Shown here piece after piece: positions 39,496-51,929 of a stretch of DNA of 64,000 nucleotides; the stretch's first letter is position 1; every line of letters begins with the position of its first letter. Where the stretch lies: the NCBI RefSeq assembly GCF_001625215.2, contig NC_030386.2, positions 39,187,296 to 39,251,295 of the forward strand, given 5' to 3'. The notes under the pieces are model-generated. The model was not told the origin of the DNA, searched no databases, and was given only the letters and a program-made list of their open reading frames with translations. This stretch comes from Daucus carota subsp. sativus (lineage: Eukaryota > Streptophyta > Magnoliopsida > Apiales > Apiaceae). Both the position numbers and the translations under genes were made by a program.

Positions 39496-42400
39496 TCATG
39501 AAGTAATGTATCTTCCCAATAACTTGACAGACGCGGCTAGTAAAAGCCACAATATAGCGAAAACTATACCAATAACGGAGAAACTAAACATTCCTCCAAC
39601 AAACTTTTGCACACGCCTCCGGGAGGTTGAAGTGGGGTTACCTGCGGGACATATAGTTTTCAACCTACCAAAGCTAGACATGCGCTCAAAAGCCTTATTT
39701 ACGAGAGCGTTTTCTGAAGCTGAAGCAGGGGTTGTAGGTATAGACTCCACAAAGGACCACAGAGCAGTAGTAAACCATGAGTCTGTACCGCCATCCTCTG
39801 TGCAGCTTTGATTTTGAATAGCTCCGGTATCCTCATTACATACACCTAAAACATATGATCAAAACTTGCTAATATTAGGACATTGTATATATAAGTAAAC
39901 AGGCGGAAGAGCTCTTGAATCCTGGCTCAAACCCCTCTTTCCCCACTTGGGCACGAGAGTTCTTGCCATGTGGAAGATGACATGGCATGTGAAAACCATC
40001 CATCTGACCAAGAGCTCTATAATGTTAGCATTACGCAGAAAAATTACTCAAATACAAAAATGTAATACAAATACAAGTATGTGGCCATGTATAATCTCAG
40101 TAACTAAAATATCGAAATATTATTGTACCATAATTTGGTTGAGAAGCAGGTGCATGATTTGTTTCCGGAGCGAAAAGGTCGTTTCTTTGTTCAGTTGCCC
40201 ATACTTGAGAACTCATCATATTCGCTTCATCATGGAAGGTGAACTCGTCATAGAAAGCAGTCCCATTCTCGACAGCATTTACATAAGAATGTGACACAAC
40301 ATTGGACATTCCCCCATCAGAAAAATGCAGCTGTGAAATTTGTTCTGGCCCACCTTGCCCCATATCTTGAAGGATCATATTTAAGTCATTGTAAATATCT
40401 GCTGCTGAAAATCCATCCATTTCATTGGATGATGGGGTATCTAGTGGTTTTTCAGAGTTTTGAACAGGTTCAGGACCAAGAAGATCATCCATTTCAAGAA
40501 AATCTTCAATGGAAATTTCACCCGACCCGTCTTCACCATTTTTCATACATGTGACGACCTCAGATGCTTGAATTGGTAATTGAGATGCAAGAGAGAGTGT
40601 GTGGTCAAAGCCAGCCTGCATATCTGAATTCGGGTAGTGGTGGGGAACCATGCTTTGATCAGGTAAACTTACATCCCCAGAGCAATGGTTTAACAATGTA
40701 CTTCCATTTTCTTTATCAGCAAATAATTGATCAAATGTGTACGAGCAAACATTGAGAGGGGGTTGATCAAACACAGTTTCATCTACAATCTTGTTTAAGA
40801 ACTCACCAATATCGTCTCCTTGATCCTGTGGCAATATAATACTTCTGGTACTGTCAATACAAGACGCATCAGCCTCCTTTGCAATATTTTGCTGGTCTAT
40901 TAAACCACTAAAACTCACACACTCGACATCAGCCCATTCCTCTTCTTTAAACGGTGCACCATATTCCTCACCATTCTTAGGACCGGGACCACTCTTTTTA
41001 TAAACCTTGTATAATACATAGTAATCCTGAGCAGAGGGACACCTTCTTAGCTCCTCTTCATCCAATGTATACTCGTGCATCACCCAGTCTGTGCGCTCAC
41101 CAGAAGGAGCACGCCCTTTGTAGTAAACCAGGGTCTTCTTCAGACCAACTGATCTTGAGTTGCTAGATATAGTCCGATCTTTACCAGTTGCTTTCCAGTA
41201 GCCATGCATGGTAGCCCGGTTTGATCTCCCTCCATTAGGATATTTCCTATCTCTAGGGCTCAAAAAGAACCATTGGCGATCTCCCGTCTTCAATTTTGAC
41301 AGCTCTGATAATAGGAGAAAAAGTATTAGTACTTTCAATACAATATTCCTTTCAGCAAATTTAATCCAAATCAACAAGAAATAGACTAATAACAAGCAGT
41401 AGAGTAGAGTCTAAGAATAACATCTTATAATGACTGTGTACACAGGAATAACCACCAATCCATAACACATAAATATAAAATTGTGCTACGTTAGTGCTTT
41501 GTTTCTCAAAAATGGAAAGATTCTATAAGCCCTGTATTGAACCAAAGATACAATATATAAGTATAGGAAGTTACTCAATTTAACCAAAAGTTTGAAATCA
41601 AATAATATAAACAACAGAGTCTCACTTGTACACCAACTTCAATAAACCATATCATCGATCTAGCTATATGAAAAACTGAACACATTACCACTTTAATCCA
41701 ATTCATAGCCGTAAACTTGTTGCAAGCAAATATACAGATAGTAGCCAAAAATACTCTCCAGCTACCTCCAATTCATAGCCAGAAACTTGTTAAAAGCAAA
41801 TATACATATAGTAGCCAAATACTCTCCAGCTACCGCCACAAAATCCAAAAATTCCATCAGACATAGAATATCAAATAGTATCTCCTAACCCAGAACCATA
41901 GCTAACCACCCGGTAATCCCCTCAGCACCGGTTGACAAGGGTAAGATGTACTCATGACTTAACTACACACTGACATCTAGCCTCTAGGAGTCTCACAAAT
42001 AACCAAAATAATTCAAAACAGTAATGTTGTGTTTGGTTGGGGAGAATGGAATGGAATGGAATGAAATGAGTAAAAATACTTAAAACTAATAGAGATAGGA
42101 AGAAAGTTTTGAGAAAAAATTAAGAGAGTGCAAAATTGCTATGATGAGATTTGTGAAGAAATTGAGGATAGGAGAGAATGGAGCATTCCATCTCAAATTG
42201 GAGGTGTGATATCTAGCCTATGATGTAAGAAATAGAATGGTAGAAGGAATGAAATTTTTTAAAAATTATGCATAAGGTAGTTCATTTTTCATTTCATTTC
42301 TTCCGCAATCATTCACCCCAACCAAACACAACATAAGTACATCATCACAAAAGAATACTATTATCAACCCACTAAACCCCCTGTCGAATCCACACAAAAA

Positions 42401-44187: not shown

Positions 44188-44221
44188 CTAGCCTATAGCA
44201 CGGGCGACCATATAATTTTAA

Positions 44222-44400
44222 TGTGATTATTTATAAGCTTATTATCATTTTATTTGTGTTTTTTTACTAATTAAATAAAATGGTTTTAAATTATATTAGT
44301 CGATTCCATATGTGAATGTTTATTTATAAGCTTAATATAATTTTTTAGTGTTTTTTTATTAATTAAATAAAATGTTATTAAATTATATTAGTCGATTGGT
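44222..44400. repeat. Diverged tandem repeats near the Helitron 3' end
   Basis: A unit of roughly 105 bases (TTTATAAGCTTA..., TAATTAAATAAAATG, AAATTATATTAGTCGATT) occurs twice, at about 44230 and about 44332. It lies directly inside the CTAG end. Confidence 0.7.
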
Positions 44401-46321
44401 TATATTCATTTTTGAAAGTTTGTCTTGTGGAATATTTTTCTATAATATAAAATATTAGTATTAACAATCAATTTGTTTTTTCATATGTGAATGTTTTCTT
44501 AATATTAATATATGATAATGTGGTTTTTGATTAATATTACCTCATATTATTCATATTTCATTACATAGCACTGAATACTATTGTATTTAAAAAAATTTAG
44601 TTATATTAAAATATTGAACTGAAATTGTTAGTTATTGGAAAAAAAATCTATTCATTTAAAAATTTTAGTTATTAAATATGTGAATTTTTTTCTTAATATT
44701 ACTATATATGATAATATTGAAAAATGCTATGATTTTGAGCTCTTTGTTAATAACTGTATTGTTCTTTGTCTAATGTGGGGAGAAGGTGAAGTAAGAGAAT
44801 TTTTATTGTTGCGAACCACAAGATTCATAGTACAATTAGAAGTTCAAAAAGTTAATCTTGTTTTGTAAGCAGTAACTAATTCATAAATATATTAATTTGT
44901 TTTAAAATATAATAATTTATGTTTGTAAGTATATTCCGAATTTTGATATTAATGGGCTTGATTTTTTTTAGAAGATTTGTTTTCGAATAATTTGAGTGAT
45001 AAATCCCTATATTAACTCAAAAAAATCCAATCCAATGTATTCGAATATTAAAAATAGAACAAAATATGTGATGTTGCTAAAACAAATTATTTAAATATAG
45101 AAAATAGAACAAAAAATGTGAAGTTACAACAAATTTTAGAAAAACCATAGAAGCATGGTATCATTAATTAACCAGCAACATTTTGTAGTGGTAACCATAC
45201 TATCTTCCAACTCTACCACACTACTGATTTCTCTTCATTTTCTGCCAATCTAGAACTCCTGAGTTATACAGGCTACAATGTTGCTTTATATGGTACACCG
45301 AAGGTTGAGGGTTCTTTAGACATGGAGTCATAATTTTTGCACAAGAAAAACCGTGATGGTAAAGAACAGAAGAACTGTTATCATCTCCGCGCCATCTTAG
45401 TGGTAGTGGTAATGGATCATGTAATTATTTCAGCGGAGAATTCACCAATTTAAAGGAAGGCCTAGTGTGCATCACTCGCTGCCAAAAAAATGTAGCTTTT
45501 GAAGAAGAGGTGGTAGGAGTTGAATTCTATAGCTATTTAAAGACGCCAAGCTTTCTATACCTCTATCAAGGCATTAACACTCATTCATTCCAGCAGTAGA
45601 GCAGTCAAATATGTTCATAGGAGGCGAGAAAATCAACCTTATCAAATAACCTAAATTTTCCATTTATCATTTGCACACCATGTCGATTGTAGTGAAACAG
45701 TACCATGTCTGACTTAGCATATTTGCTACATGTATTACCTAGTTTCTTTCTCTCTTTAACAGTATGTTCCAACTTAATCTTGTATCTTGTCTGGTATTAA
45801 CCTTTAGAAAATGAAAAGACTTGGTGAAAACTTTCTGAATTGACAAAAATGTTGACTTATATCACTTGTCCTCCCTGTACTCTTAGAAATCTAACGCAGT
45901 GGCAGAGCAATGCGGCGTATCATCTTTAGAATGACTAATAAGATCATCATAGAAAATAGTTTGCTTATGTGTCACACATATATCATTGAAATAAAACAAA
46001 CAAAGTATATCAACTGATCAACAAAGACTAAATGGCACCCTTCTTGAACTCAAATATGTCTGGATCTAGTTATCTAGTTTGGTGGGAAAGAATAGAATGA
46101 ATATCAAAGGTTGGAGCTAAGTTCCGAAGAAAATTAGTGAAAAACGACATTGGAAAGGGTATAAATTATGGGATGGAAAGGGTATATTACTCATTGCAAA
46201 CAACAGCCGAATATCCAGATGCCAAAAAACATAATAAACTAAAATTTAATGGATATACAGAAAGAAAGTGTATGCCACTGCTTATATCTTGGCCAAACTG
46301 CAAGACTCTTGAATCAATGAG

Positions 46322-47063
46322 TTACAGAATTTTCCATTTCCGTTCCAAAGCATTTGTGATCTTTGATATACAATATACCGTACTCAATGGGGAGCCAGAA
46401 ACTGAACAACCACGGTAGATATATAATTAATAAGGGGAAAAAACAGGACAGATGAGTTTGTTAAAATCCAATCATAGAGGATGCAATAATATACAAGTTC
46501 AAAACAACTTACTTGATATAAAATCGTCTACAAACTCCTTTTCAATTTTCCCATGGGCCATTGCACCAACCTGTTTACATAGGATTGGAGATGATAGTCA
46601 TACAGAATATCCCCCATAAGAAAATCAACAACCCTTTGACCTCTGAAACCCAATTTATACTCTTTGTAATCCATAAATTTATTTAAATTCTACTTCAGCA
46701 TATTTTACACTAAATATAAACAAAATTACACAATTTATCAATATTACAATCCTATCTTGAAATATAGTATATCATATATAAACAAATGTTAGAGTTCAGC
46801 TTCCTGAAACAAAAAAAAAAAAAAAAAAAAAGCAAAAGAGATTGTTTACCTATTCTGCGAGAGAGTTTACAGGCAATTACTTAAAAGCAGTAAGTGTACA
46901 CACAAACCCATCATCTAATCTTCCAAAATCTTATTAGAAAGAAAGGGTTTAAGCTACAAATAGTAACCTTGCCAACTTTAGCAACCCCCAAAGAAGCCCT
47001 TTCAAGTATAAAAATAACACCATTCTTCTTATCATCCTCGACTGCAGGTTGTGTTTTATCCAT
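46322..47063 (-). CDS. Internally deleted NEP1/EMG1 rRNA methyltransferase fragment
   Basis: Three exons: 47063-46968, 46570-46513 and 46401-46322. The first carries GVIFILERASLGVAKVGK, matching the start of the SPOUT methyltransferase domain of NEP1. The second carries VGAMAHGKIEKEFVDDFI and the third SPLSTVYCISKITNALE with its own stop, matching the C-terminus. The middle of the protein (over 100 residues in intact NEP1) is missing. Even so, the phases join and give an open 77-residue product starting MDKTQPAVEDD. NEP1 methylates a pseudouridine of 18S rRNA. This copy keeps the glycine-rich cofactor-loop part but lacks the RNA-binding middle. Probably non-functional captured DNA, but not obviously broken as a reading frame. 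Confidence 0.8.
46808..46832. repeat. Poly(A) tract
   Basis: A run of about 23 A inside the first intron of the NEP1 fragment. Confidence 0.9.
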
Positions 47064-48415
47064 AAAATAAGTGAATTACCAGCATAATAAGTGCATTGTT
47101 CAAATCGTTTTTGCTTTCAATAATAAATTATACAGCTAGAATGATTCCTATTTTTTGGTGTACATTGTGGTAAGAATTGTCCTCTTTTTTCTTAGTGATA
47201 TAATAAATTTTAGATTAAAACTATAAAGGGTTTGTGTTTTACTTTTTTGGAGCTGGATTTTCATAAAATTTATGGTACTTTGATTAACTGTTATTGTACC
47301 TGCTCAGATATTTTTGACCTTTATTTTCCAACAGTCAACCCCTCTAAGCAACACACTTAGGCACACAAAATGGAAACAATTTATAAGTTAAATCCTTGAG
47401 TATTAAAATTATAAAACTTGTCCTGTTTTTAGTAAAAGTTAAGCTTGTCCTGTTTTAAGTAAAAGTTAAGCAGAGTGTCTTGTCAGCAAATTAGAGGCCA
47501 GAACTTGGAATACAAAAAGCAACTATGAACACAAATATGAAATGGGTTATGTGGAAATTAGCTACACTTTTCTTCTTCTTTGCAATGGTTCCTGGTGCAG
47601 AATGTTGATTAACTAAACATTTACTGCAATTAACTTATGCTATTTCTGGATGGATTCAGCGGAATTTTTGATGGAATATTGCACTATACTACTATTTAAT
47701 TGTTAAATTTAAAATTTCCATTCCCCCTCCATTCTATACCTACAAATTTAAGGTAGACCTCAAACTCATTAATTTGAGAATGAAATTTCCATTCTTTTCT
47801 GTACTCAGGTTCTTCTCAAACCTCATCATAGAAATTTTGCACTATAATCTTTTTCACTCTTCATCCTACATCCTTTGCTGCTTATCTATATTTTTTTCAA
47901 CTTTTCATTTTGTTACCACCTCATTCCTTTCCTTCCAACCAAATGGGCTTTAGACTTTATGATGGAGCTGATAAGTCAAGTCATATAATGGTGAGTATCA
48001 AAGGTCATTCACAAACTCCATTATTTCTGGTCAGTATATAATCTGAGCCGGTTGATATTTAGGCCTACTTACAGGCTTCTTTTTTTTAAAACTTATTCAA
48101 TTAGGTCAAACCTACTTTAATTACAATATCTTCATATATTATAATTTAAACACATTTGTTGGGCCTATATATTTACATATATTAACGGGCCTAATAAAAT
48201 TATATTAATCCAAGGACATCCTTAAGACTAACATAAAAAAGTGAAATATTAAAAGTTAACAAATATATAGAGTGGTCTTCTATTATTGATGTCATATCTT
48301 AAGAGTGTAATTTCAGGTCTATGATTGTTGGAGGTGGGATTCTGAGAAAATGGATAAGATTAGTTGAAAAAAGATGTTAAGCAAGTCTTTTGTATTGGAT
48401 GGAGAAGATTGGTAC

Positions 48416-49641
48416 CTTGGACTTCTTGTGAAGCGTAAGAAGTGAAAGGCTGACTATCAGCTTTCTCAACATCTGCAGATGATCTTTTGGACCTTTTCTT
48501 CACTACAAAGAATGCAACCACGGCTCCAACAACTAAAATGGATATCACAATTCCTGCCACACCACCACCGCCTATACCTGATTTCTTGTATCCACCACCA
48601 TCTGATGAGTTTTTTTTGTCATTTTGTTTTCTATTTCGGTTGCTATTGCTGGATGGAGGAGTTCCAGGTGGAGGAGGTGGTGCTGGACCGGAACTCCATG
48701 AGTTGCCCTCTCTCCTGTTAAAATAATCATGTATGTACTGCTCAAAGATAAAATCCCCTACTTGATTAAGACCATTGTAAGACGATTGATGTGAGAATGT
48801 CTTACTGAATATTTATGTTTTTTAATCTTTCAGGAATCCAACCGCTGAAATGGTTATTTCAAATATTCCTGAGATTGTAGATACAATCAACTTATTAGTA
48901 CAACAATTGAAAACACTTTTTAAGTAATAGACTTGTATCACTCACAAATTATGCAGGGGAAGATTAGTAAGGACATCAATGGAGATTGTAAACTGGTTGT
49001 TTTGCAAATACCTGCACAACAAATATCTTTGAACACAACAAAAATCTTATAAATTTAGATACTAAAACTATGACAATATACTTACATATTGGCCATACTT
49101 GAAGGAGCGGTAAAACTTTCAGGAAGATCACCTATCATGGAATTAAAAGAGATATCCCTGGTTCAAGGAAGATTACATGTCATTGTGTCAAGGAAAAACT
49201 CAAATCCTGGCAAGTGAAAAATTGAAATGTCCTTGCAATGTAGATCAACAGAAAGCAAATTTCATGAGAGAAAGGTGGCCAATATGCTGCACTTTCGGTT
49301 CCCGGTATGAATGAATAAACAAAACTCAAATTTAGAAAAAAGTAAATCCATTCAAAAAAATCATAACGAAAGAACATTAACGTGTATGAAACTGGACAGG
49401 ACCAATCTTACAAATTAGAGAGAGCTGAAAGCGATCCAAACATGTCATTTAGCTGGCCCTGTAGTTGATTGCGACTAAGATTTTTGCACAGGAAAATAGA
49501 GCGGAAAAAAAAATCAATATCTAATTTTGTCCACTAAACAGAACTGGATAAAATAAGGAGGAAACTAACATGTTCTCGATCTTAGTCATTAGTGATATGG
49601 AATATGGGACACCGCCAGTGAAACCACATCCAGCGAGATTT
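48416..49641 (-). pseudogene. Fragment of a STRUBBELIG-receptor-family (SRF) gene
   Basis: Six exons: 49641-49570, 49483-49412, 49157-49086, 49011-48946, about 48873-48796, and 48714-48416. The 72/72/72/66 base pattern is that of LRR exons. The readings GFTGGVPYSISLMTKIE, NLSRNQLQGQLNDMFGSLS, LTNLPLH and NNHFSGWIPERLKN match SRF leucine-rich repeats. The last exon has a Pro-rich stretch and a transmembrane segment ([20 protein letters not shown]) followed by KKRSKRSS. The signal peptide, the first repeats and the whole kinase domain are absent. Two lesions are visible. The acceptor of exon 2 reads CAA instead of CAG (49484), and a TGA replaces the Glu of the N-I-E-N-N repeat in exon 5. Captured and decaying. 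Confidence 0.85.
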
Positions 49642-49903
49642 CTACATTAACAAGGAAGGTGTAAAAAATAATTACTCTCTGTGTCTAGGTAATGTGTTAA
49701 TCTGATGATTTTAAAGAAAGGGTTAATAACACCTTATAATACTTCATTATAAGGTCACATAGCCCATCTACCATAAGACGGAAAATCAAAAATATATTAT
49801 TAACAAATATTATGTCACATGTATGTGATACTATGATTACCTGATAGCATAAGCAATAGTACAAAATTAAAAATAATAATAATGCATAAGCTTCTCTCAT
49901 TAC

Positions 49904-51693
49904 CTAGAATATATTCAACATCTTCAACAAAACCCATCCTCAGCATTTCATCAGCTTCGTCAAGGACACGAAACTTTGATGAACTAAAATCAACATTTCC
50001 CCTTTCAATGTGATCCTATACAACAAAAATGACAAAAAGAAAAAAAAGTTTCAAGAGCAAAGTAGTGATAAATACCTACTTCACAAGCGAAATTGCCATG
50101 TATTACTAGGGTTGCACAAATTAAAAACAAAGTACCTTTATACGACCAGGTGTTCCCACAACTATATCAACCCCTCTCTTCAGCTGTATTTGCTGATTGT
50201 TGTAGGGTGCTCCACCATACAAACAGACCGAATTTAGCTCCAAAGACCCACCATAGACTTCGAAATCTGCAGCCACCTACCATAAAAGAAAAGGGTAAAC
50301 ACAAATTGAACCGACAAAATATGAGTTAAAAAATGGCCCAGTAAAATTAGAAGTTCCATGGAACAGTATCCACACATAATACCTGTGTTGACAACTCCCT
50401 TGTGGGTAATAGCACGAGTACACTTGGAGATCTCCCATCACCAGTCTTTCGAGATGTTTTTAAGGCTCCGTTTGTTAAGGACTCCAATATGGGTAACACA
50501 AACGCCAAGGTTTTACCCTAAAAAATGGAAAGAAAATGAAGCCAGACAGCCACTTTGGCATAAGTAGAAAAAGATCAACCAGAATAAACCCCAAAAAATT
50601 AAACTTAAAAATTACTCAAGTTATATTGAATATATATCAATGCTCTGTCTCACTTCATAACAACATCCAGAAGCTGTTAAGTGTACTTTAAAAATTGTTT
50701 TTTCTACACCTTAGTCTTTCCTATACATTCTTTTCTTAACAAACCACTATATTTAGAGTTCTGGAAAATTGATTCTCGAGAACATCAGACTTCTCACAAA
50801 GTCAATTTAATCCCACAAAATTTGAATTTTATATATCCATGCGAAGATAGCAAAATGCAGCCTCGCAAATTCTTCACTCAATCATTGTTAAACCTAAGTA
50901 ATCCGTGCCCATCAACTGGTGCAAGATTCTAAAAATTGCCAAAATTAAACTAAATGTTGCTTCTTATGACAATAAAGTTGATCCTTATTAACACTACATT
51001 ACTACATTTAATAATAATAATAAATGAAGAAACTAATTGGGCAAAACTACAAAGCCCGAATGGAATAATCTTGGTGAGAGGAGACAATTAAAGTTCAACT
51101 TGCCCCCCAAATTTGTGTGGCTCCCATTTCATACAAATTCACAAAGTTTCTACTATCGTCCTCCAAGTTTCAACCACCACAAAACAATTTAACTTTGTAC
51201 CCAATAACTCACAAACCAAACCTCCAATTTCGGGCAAATTTGCACACAAATTCATTCTAAACTACAAATACAAGATATAAATGCTATCAAATAGTATCAA
51301 TAATTAAAAGTATAATTACCTGACCAGTCCGAGCTCTCCCAACTAAATCAGTCCCATCAAGAATTGTATCAAACGTCATCGCCTGAATCGGAAACAACGC
51401 CTCAATCCCATTCTCCCTCAACGGCTTCGAAATGCATTCGGATTCTCCTCCTTCACCTCCTCCTCCACCTTCATCTTCTTCACCTTCTTCCTACTCTTCT
51501 CCTCCCCAGAGCTCACATCACTCCTATCCTCTTCCTCCTCAATCACCTTCCGCTTCTTCTCCTTCTCCTCCTCCTTCTTGCTCTTCTCCTCCGAATCATC
51601 GAACACAAACTCCTCGGAATAAGAATCGCTCTTCTTGCTCTTCTTCTTCTCCTTCTTCACGCTTCTGTTCTCGATAGAAGAGTCTGTTTCCAT
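49904..51693 (-). pseudogene. 5' half of a DEAD-box RNA helicase gene (RH7/PRH75 type)
   Basis: Four exons: 51693-51320, 50517-50383, 50276-50136 and 50015-49904. A Lys/Glu-rich head (KKEKKKSKKSDSYSEEFVFD) leads to GIEALFPIQA (Q motif), GRARTGQ-GKT split by intron 1 (motif I), LLPTREL (Ia), VVGTPGRIK (Ib) and [13 protein letters not shown] (motif II). It stops before the SAT motif, so only the first RecA domain is present. RH7-type proteins are nucleolar and act in rRNA processing and cold response. Exon 1 is frameshifted: the head frame runs NPNAF and stops, while ISKPLRENGIEALF continues in another frame. Several intact residues are missing at that point. The next exons are clean. Confidence 0.85.
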
Positions 51694-51929
51694 GGCGGAG
51701 ATGAAGAGAGAGAGAGAGGGATATGTTGATAGGCTCTTGTACGGTGCTGTAGTTAGGGGGCTGTTAAAGTCCAACTCTGCTGGGAAATAGAGTCCTGACA
51801 GGAGACAGGCTTTTAAACATTAGTACAGCGTCGAGACTGAAACCAAAAAATGTGACGAAACCAAAAAATATGAACAAAAAGTAGGACTACAAATTATACC
51901 CATGTTGGCTTATTATAGTATAGTATAGA

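What the first reader, a model, noticed from the sequence alone, without database searches (positions are those of the whole stretch)
44188..51929. Helitron-like block carrying pieces of three unrelated host genes in one orientation
Seen: Helitron-type 5' end (TCTATACTATACTATA after A) and a CTAG-T 3' end 7.7 kb apart on the minus strand. Between them, in order, are exons of an RH7-type DEAD-box helicase, an SRF receptor and NEP1, all transcribed from the element's 5' to 3' end with introns kept. Known: plant Helitrons capture unlinked gene fragments this way. Inference: one element acquired the three pieces and could make a chimeric transcript. The RH7 fragment starts about 240 bp inside the 5' end, so it may bring its own promoter. 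Direct splicing of RH7 exon 4 (phase 1) to the first SRF exon (phase 2) would be out of frame.
Basis: partly seen in the sequence, partly recalled or inferred. Interest (0 to 1): 0.85.

Follow-up and report, generated by a model that had tools for sequence, protein, structure and literature searches.

The report
Carrot Helitron carrying captured gene pieces
A jumping DNA element in a plant genome that fits carrot carries pieces of several unrelated host genes; this is a known habit of plant Helitrons, but a sister copy keeps a trace of how the newest piece may have been added at the front.

Summary
The block is a real Helitron. The genome holds 1,065 close matches to the 5' end and 755 to the 3' end (at most 2 mismatches; reversed-pattern controls 0). 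The three gene pieces are confirmed, sense-oriented, introns kept.

One joint acquisition is not supported. Among Helitron copies found, SRF occurs in 9, NEP1 in 4, the C3 piece in 4, RH7 in 2. The only sibling with RH7 (C7:35.33 Mb) keeps a damaged second Helitron 5' end between RH7 and SRF. NEP1 tends to be most diverged from its donor; SRF and RH7 do not differ. I infer stepwise growth, RH7 last, at the 5' side.

RH7 brings no promoter: the match starts inside the donor's coding exon 1. A net 28-base loss breaks its frame. Between the siblings exons diverge as fast as introns, so it looks like neutral decay. Among ends searched, only this copy shows this broken 3' hairpin.

New member of a known kind: stepwise capture is published for maize.

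The parts
51698..51929 (-). Helitron 5' end region (232 bp), TC terminus, inserted after A
   Evidence: at least 39 related 5' ends,065 pattern matches
49705..51697 (-). RH7-type DEAD-box helicase piece: part of exon 1 to the intron after exon 4
   Evidence: C6:37396334-37398346; Pfam DEAD
51418..51693 (-). 91-codon remnant reading frame of RH7 exon 1, cut short by a frameshift
49673..49704 (-). spacer between RH7 and SRF; about 27 bp of it is shared with the RH7-less copy at C4:29.92 Mb
48049..49672 (-). SRF (STRUBBELIG-family receptor) piece, with a deletion of about 455 donor bases near 48261 bridged by a short shared stretch
   Evidence: C5:306693-308121 and C5:308577-308825; Pfam LRR_1
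48012..48048 (-). spacer of 37 bp at the SRF / C3-piece junction (33-37 bp in four copies)
47105..48011 (-). fourth captured piece, matching C3:5022409-5023673; no gene recognised; contains a repeated stretch near 47845-47712
44999..47042 (-). EMG1/NEP1 piece: part of exon 1, last two exons and 3' flank; middle exons lost
   Evidence: C4:29030569-29027380 (also similar to C4:47862145-47860239)
44188..44806 (-). Helitron 3' region ending CTAG before T
44188..44210 (-). 3' terminus lacking 11 bp (second hairpin arm) that 15 of 17 inspected 3' ends keep

Best explanation
A non-autonomous Helitron of a large family (about a thousand 5' ends) that presumably moves with enzymes supplied in trans. 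Its cargo was built in steps. SRF, the C3 piece and NEP1 were already together in an older element whose relatives survive on C1, C4 and C5. RH7 was added later, in the line of this copy and its C7 sibling, between a new outer 5' end and the older element. The C7 sibling still has the relic of an inner 5' end right after RH7, as expected if replication from an upstream 5' end ran through RH7 and on to the older element's 3' end, or if it switched template into RH7 and restarted at the 5' end. This copy then lost the relic, part of SRF, most NEP1 exons and a 3' hairpin arm, and its gene pieces decay neutrally. Shown: ends, family, apparent donors, shared junctions, inner 5' end, frameshift, equal exon and intron divergence between siblings. 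Inferred: order of capture, mechanism, trans-mobilisation, any transcription.
For: Ends and family. Donors and pieces. Same RH7-side start (donor base 1501) in both siblings plus shared changes against the donor. SRF/C3 junction with similar spacer in 4 copies. Inner 5' end at C7 directly after RH7, 92.6% identical over 217 columns to that element's outer 5' end. Donor divergence (Jukes-Cantor): RH7 introns 0.053, SRF 0.049, C3 piece 0.105, NEP1 0.108. Neutral decay: between siblings exons 24/679, introns 32/1044, p 0.58. No ORF of 150 aa or more inside the element.
Against: RH7 and SRF do not differ in donor divergence (p 0.66), so 'RH7 last' rests on distribution and the inner 5' end. The NEP1 contrast shrinks when only its gene part is used: against the C4:29.03 locus p is 0.003, 0.085, 0.004 and 0.053 for four copies; against C4:47.86 all four p are below 0.002. 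The C3 piece differs from SRF in this copy (p 2e-6) but not in the C1 copy (p 0.60). Five of the nine SRF copies lack NEP1, so loss or exchange must also have occurred. In the SRF tree the two RH7 copies group only weakly (64/62). This copy's 5' end is only 79% identical to its sibling's although their RH7 pieces are about 97% identical. The NEP1 source gene is not settled.
Confidence: 0.78

Rival explanations
1. All pieces were captured at once, or the RH7-bearing form is ancestral and the other copies lost RH7 and gained new 5' ends.
For: RH7 and SRF have similar donor divergence; Helitron copies here clearly lose internal parts.
Against: RH7 in 2 of 9 SRF-bearing copies; the RH7-less C4 copy shares the spacer before SRF with this copy but has other Helitron sequence upstream; NEP1 tends to be more diverged.
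Confidence: 0.17
2. RH7 came in by template switching or filler-DNA repair within one element, which also duplicated its 5' end, rather than by read-through between two neighbouring Helitrons.
For: Inner and outer 5' ends of the C7 sibling are each other's closest relatives among the 13 rows compared (92.6%); it does not need RH7 to have been interrupted at its own locus. Filler DNA is the model favoured for an insect family in PMC6544945 (passages).
Against: The margin is small (next best 90.6% and 90.0%); no clear microhomology at the RH7 start.
Confidence: 0.4
3. Not a transposon: a duplicated segment or misassembly with adjacent host genes.
For: None found.
Against: Apparent donors on C6, C5, C4 and C3; matching ends and A/T sites in many copies; no joined flank elsewhere.
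Confidence: 0.01

Closest known systems
Maize Helitrons with stepwise gene-fragment capture (Dong et al. 2011, PMC3288121; passages and section 9 seen)
   Same: Several unlinked gene fragments in one element; family members show the steps; internal 'pseudo' termini with damaged motifs; internal losses
   Different: Another plant and family; here the fossil is a pseudo 5' end beside the captured gene, whereas that paper's detailed case has pseudo 3' ends
Helraiser / Helibat1 of bats (PMC4778049; abstract and passages seen)
   Same: TC/CTAG ends, 3' hairpin as terminator, read-through capture
   Different: Resurrected animal element with transposase; here no enzyme in the element and the hairpin is broken. 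There, deleting the hairpin lowered transposition to 8.8% and raised read-through
Rice, Arabidopsis and maize non-autonomous Helitrons (PMC2575219; passages seen)
   Same: A few captures spread by transposition, copies retaining different portions
   Different: Different host genes and family
Helitron in the carrot Y2/EX1-like gene DCAR_730022 (PMC10581907; passages seen)
   Same: Helitron in the same assembly, if the identification as carrot DH1 v3 is right
   Different: 17-kb insertion; whether it shares this family's ends was not tested

Membership tests
Helitron (plant, TC/CTRR type) | 5' TC and 3' CTRR | tested here: met
Helitron (plant, TC/CTRR type) | insertion between A and T without target-site duplication | tested here: met
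   A before and T after in this copy and in the intact ends inspected; no duplication seen by eye at this copy's flanks; no empty site available
Helitron (plant, TC/CTRR type) | 16-20 bp palindrome 10-12 bp before the 3' end | tested here: not met
   11 bp of the second arm missing in this copy; both arms present in 15 of 17 distinct 3' ends; this broken end matches nowhere else in the genome with up to 3 mismatches. Read as decay of a family member, since all other features and the family are met
Helitron (plant, TC/CTRR type) | multiple dispersed copies sharing both ends | tested here: met
autonomous Helitron | Rep/helicase gene inside the element | tested here: not met
   no ORF of 150 aa or more in 44188-51929; 168 Helitron_like_N matches elsewhere in the genome
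gene-capturing Helitron | host gene pieces with an outside source locus, introns kept | tested here: met
expressed chimeric gene | spliced transcript joining the pieces | not testable with these tools
   no RNA data; reading frame broken

The most novel reading that the evidence does not exclude
In this family gene capture proceeds at the front of the element: each step puts a new outer 5' end and a host piece ahead of the older element, whose own 5' end is left inside as a damaged relic. The C7 sibling would be a freshly legible fossil of one such step, giving a cargo ordered from oldest (3') to youngest (5').
Probability: 0.4. Interest if true: 0.55.

Novelty: new member of a known kind. Interest (0 to 1): 0.38.

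Why it matters
Plant Helitrons are known to shuffle gene pieces, but how a piece gets in is still debated (end bypass against filler DNA). Here sibling copies with and without RH7, apparent donors in the same genome, and an internal 5' end beside the newest piece make one capture step directly readable. It also corrects an over-reading: the piece brings no promoter and shows neutral decay, so a new gene is unlikely.

Tried and rejected
Rejected: segmental duplication (donors on four contigs); promoter capture from RH7; a maintained coding sequence; other copies using a different 3' end. No second genomic site joins both flanks, so no paralogous empty site. The C3 piece could not be assigned to a gene. 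Rfam and tRNA scans of the window gave nothing. A search for an enzyme-bearing partner stayed suggestive: on C1, 3 of 20 listed Helitron_like_N matches have a family 3' end 15-20 kb downstream on the same strand (expected 0.25, P 0.002, window chosen after seeing the data); the other 130 listed matches had none, but there only exact 3' ends were at hand. Paper searches listed no paper on gene-capturing Helitrons in carrot; only the held library was searched.

Limits: the genome search lists and scores only the best candidates, so copy numbers are lower bounds; the list of 3' ends was cut near the end of C1. No RNA, no second accession. Exon borders used for RH7 are off by 1-2 bases in places. 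In one search I first turned some loci the wrong way; the error showed in overlaps and redid it (42 overlaps, 0 conflicts).

Full report
What it is. The window is G000:C6:39187296-39251295 of a plant assembly of 441 Mb. Its nine large contigs sum to 440.7 Mb, the largest is 64.56 Mb and C4 is 51.15 Mb (contig lengths); the carrot DH1 v3 assembly is described as nine sequences, 440.7 Mb, maximum 64.5 and scaffold N50 51.1 (PMC10581907, passages). I take it as carrot; no species test was run.

Ends and family. The 5' end follows A and starts TC; the 3' end is CTAG before T. Relatives of the 5' end were found at 39 places including this one and of the 3' end at 40 (both lists capped). Of these, 18 combinations lie on one strand in the right order within 60 kb, using 16 distinct 3' ends, and none in a wrong order. 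Pattern counts are 1,065 and 755 with controls at 0. On C1, 17 of 50 exact 5' ends have a 3' end within 12 kb, many giving elements of 330-780 bp; chance mean 0.28; two neighbours were on the wrong strand. Two copies on C1 and C8 are both 8,474 bp long by their end coordinates and differ at one of the first 3,448 bases, so the family moved recently.

Cargo. Going from 5' to 3': RH7 piece (C6:37396334-37398346), spacer, SRF piece (C5:306693-308825 with a deletion), spacer, a piece matching C3:5022409-5023673, and EMG1/NEP1 with its 3' flank (best over its whole length C4:29030569-29027380; another NEP1 locus at C4:47.86 Mb). Pfam supports DEAD, LRR and EMG1; EMG1 donor exons also match solved NEP1 structures. 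The RH7 piece begins 74 bp inside the donor's reading frame (start codon placed by reading frame and recall), so no RH7 promoter is carried. Exon 1 has lost 16 and 12 bases, giving a 91-codon remnant frame. The sibling has its own losses of 19, 4, 1 and 47 bases in exons.

How it was put together. SRF is in 9 Helitron copies, NEP1 in 4, the C3 piece in 4, RH7 in 2. The two RH7 copies share the RH7-side start and changes not in the donor, so RH7 was probably captured once. The C4 copy without RH7 shares the roughly 27-bp spacer before SRF with this copy. In the C7 sibling RH7 runs further and is followed at once by a damaged Helitron 5' end, then SRF. That is what is expected if a new 5' end plus RH7 was put in front of an existing element. 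Maize shows stepwise capture and elements with multiple, damaged inner ends (PMC3288121, passages and section 9).

Relative age. Divergence from donor (Jukes-Cantor) in this copy is 0.053 for RH7 introns, 0.049 for SRF, 0.105 for the C3 piece, 0.108 for NEP1. NEP1 against SRF over the whole match has p 2e-9, but that includes a 3' flank where this copy differs at 133 of 1,167 sites. In the gene part alone, against C4:29.03, p is 0.003, 0.085, 0.004 and 0.053 for this copy, the C7, C5 and C1 copies; against C4:47.86 all four p are below 0.002. The C3 piece is not more diverged than SRF in the C1 copy (p 0.60), and RH7 and SRF do not differ (p 0.66). So the gradient supports an old NEP1 and says nothing on RH7 against SRF.

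Fate. Between the two RH7 siblings exons differ at 24 of 679 sites and introns at 32 of 1,044 (p 0.58), while donor and this copy differ less in exons (19/765) than introns (60/1,162; p 0.003); for donor and sibling the contrast is weaker (27/707, 58/1,020; p 0.09). That is the pattern of a constrained donor and unconstrained copies. The 3' hairpin of this copy lacks 11 bp; predicted folding energy of the last 45 bases is -3.0 against -17.4 and -17.1 for two others (RNA parameters); this end occurs once in the genome with up to 3 mismatches. In Helraiser, hairpin loss cut transposition to 8.8% and raised read-through (PMC4778049, abstract and passages); by analogy this copy is probably a poor jumper. 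Transcription was not testable.

Noticed in passing
G000:C7:39180360-39180818 (minus): A Helitron_like_N match lies 5.3-5.8 kb from SNP chr7_39186121 of the carrot Y2/EX1-like gene, which a 17-kb Helitron disrupts in orange carrots, if contig C7 is chromosome 7. The Y2 Helitron may carry its own Rep gene; its ends were not read.
   Followed up: partly
G000:C1:34523259-34514786 and G000:C8:12099955-12108428: SRF-bearing copies of equal length (8,474 bp) with one difference in the first 3,448 bases: very recent movement.
   Followed up: partly
G000:C4:29917617 onwards (L030, L046, L064): SRF-bearing relative carries a GH16 (xyloglucan hydrolase-like) gene piece where others have NEP1.
   Followed up: partly
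G000:C1:38.29, 51.42 and 36.84 Mb: Helitron_like_N matches with a family 3' end 15-20 kb downstream on the same strand: possible enzyme-bearing partners.
   Followed up: no
G000:C7:40887572-40907565 and G000:C9:30778419-30813578: Longer relatives contain retrotransposon-like reading frames and an outer 5' end of a different subtype from the inner body.
   Followed up: partly
G000:C3:5022409-5023673: Source of the fourth piece lies about 47 kb from the carrot Or SNP chr3_5070341; probably coincidence.
   Followed up: no
window 42024-42334: 46-bp inverted repeats 219 bp apart (MITE-like) between the Helitron's 3' end and a NAC-type gene at 40097-41395.
   Followed up: no
copies on C5:25.97, C1:28.97 Mb: Shared 1.2-1.7 kb insert inside the SRF piece at donor 2964-2966 with a 3-bp overlap, absent in the C4 copy.
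   Followed up: no
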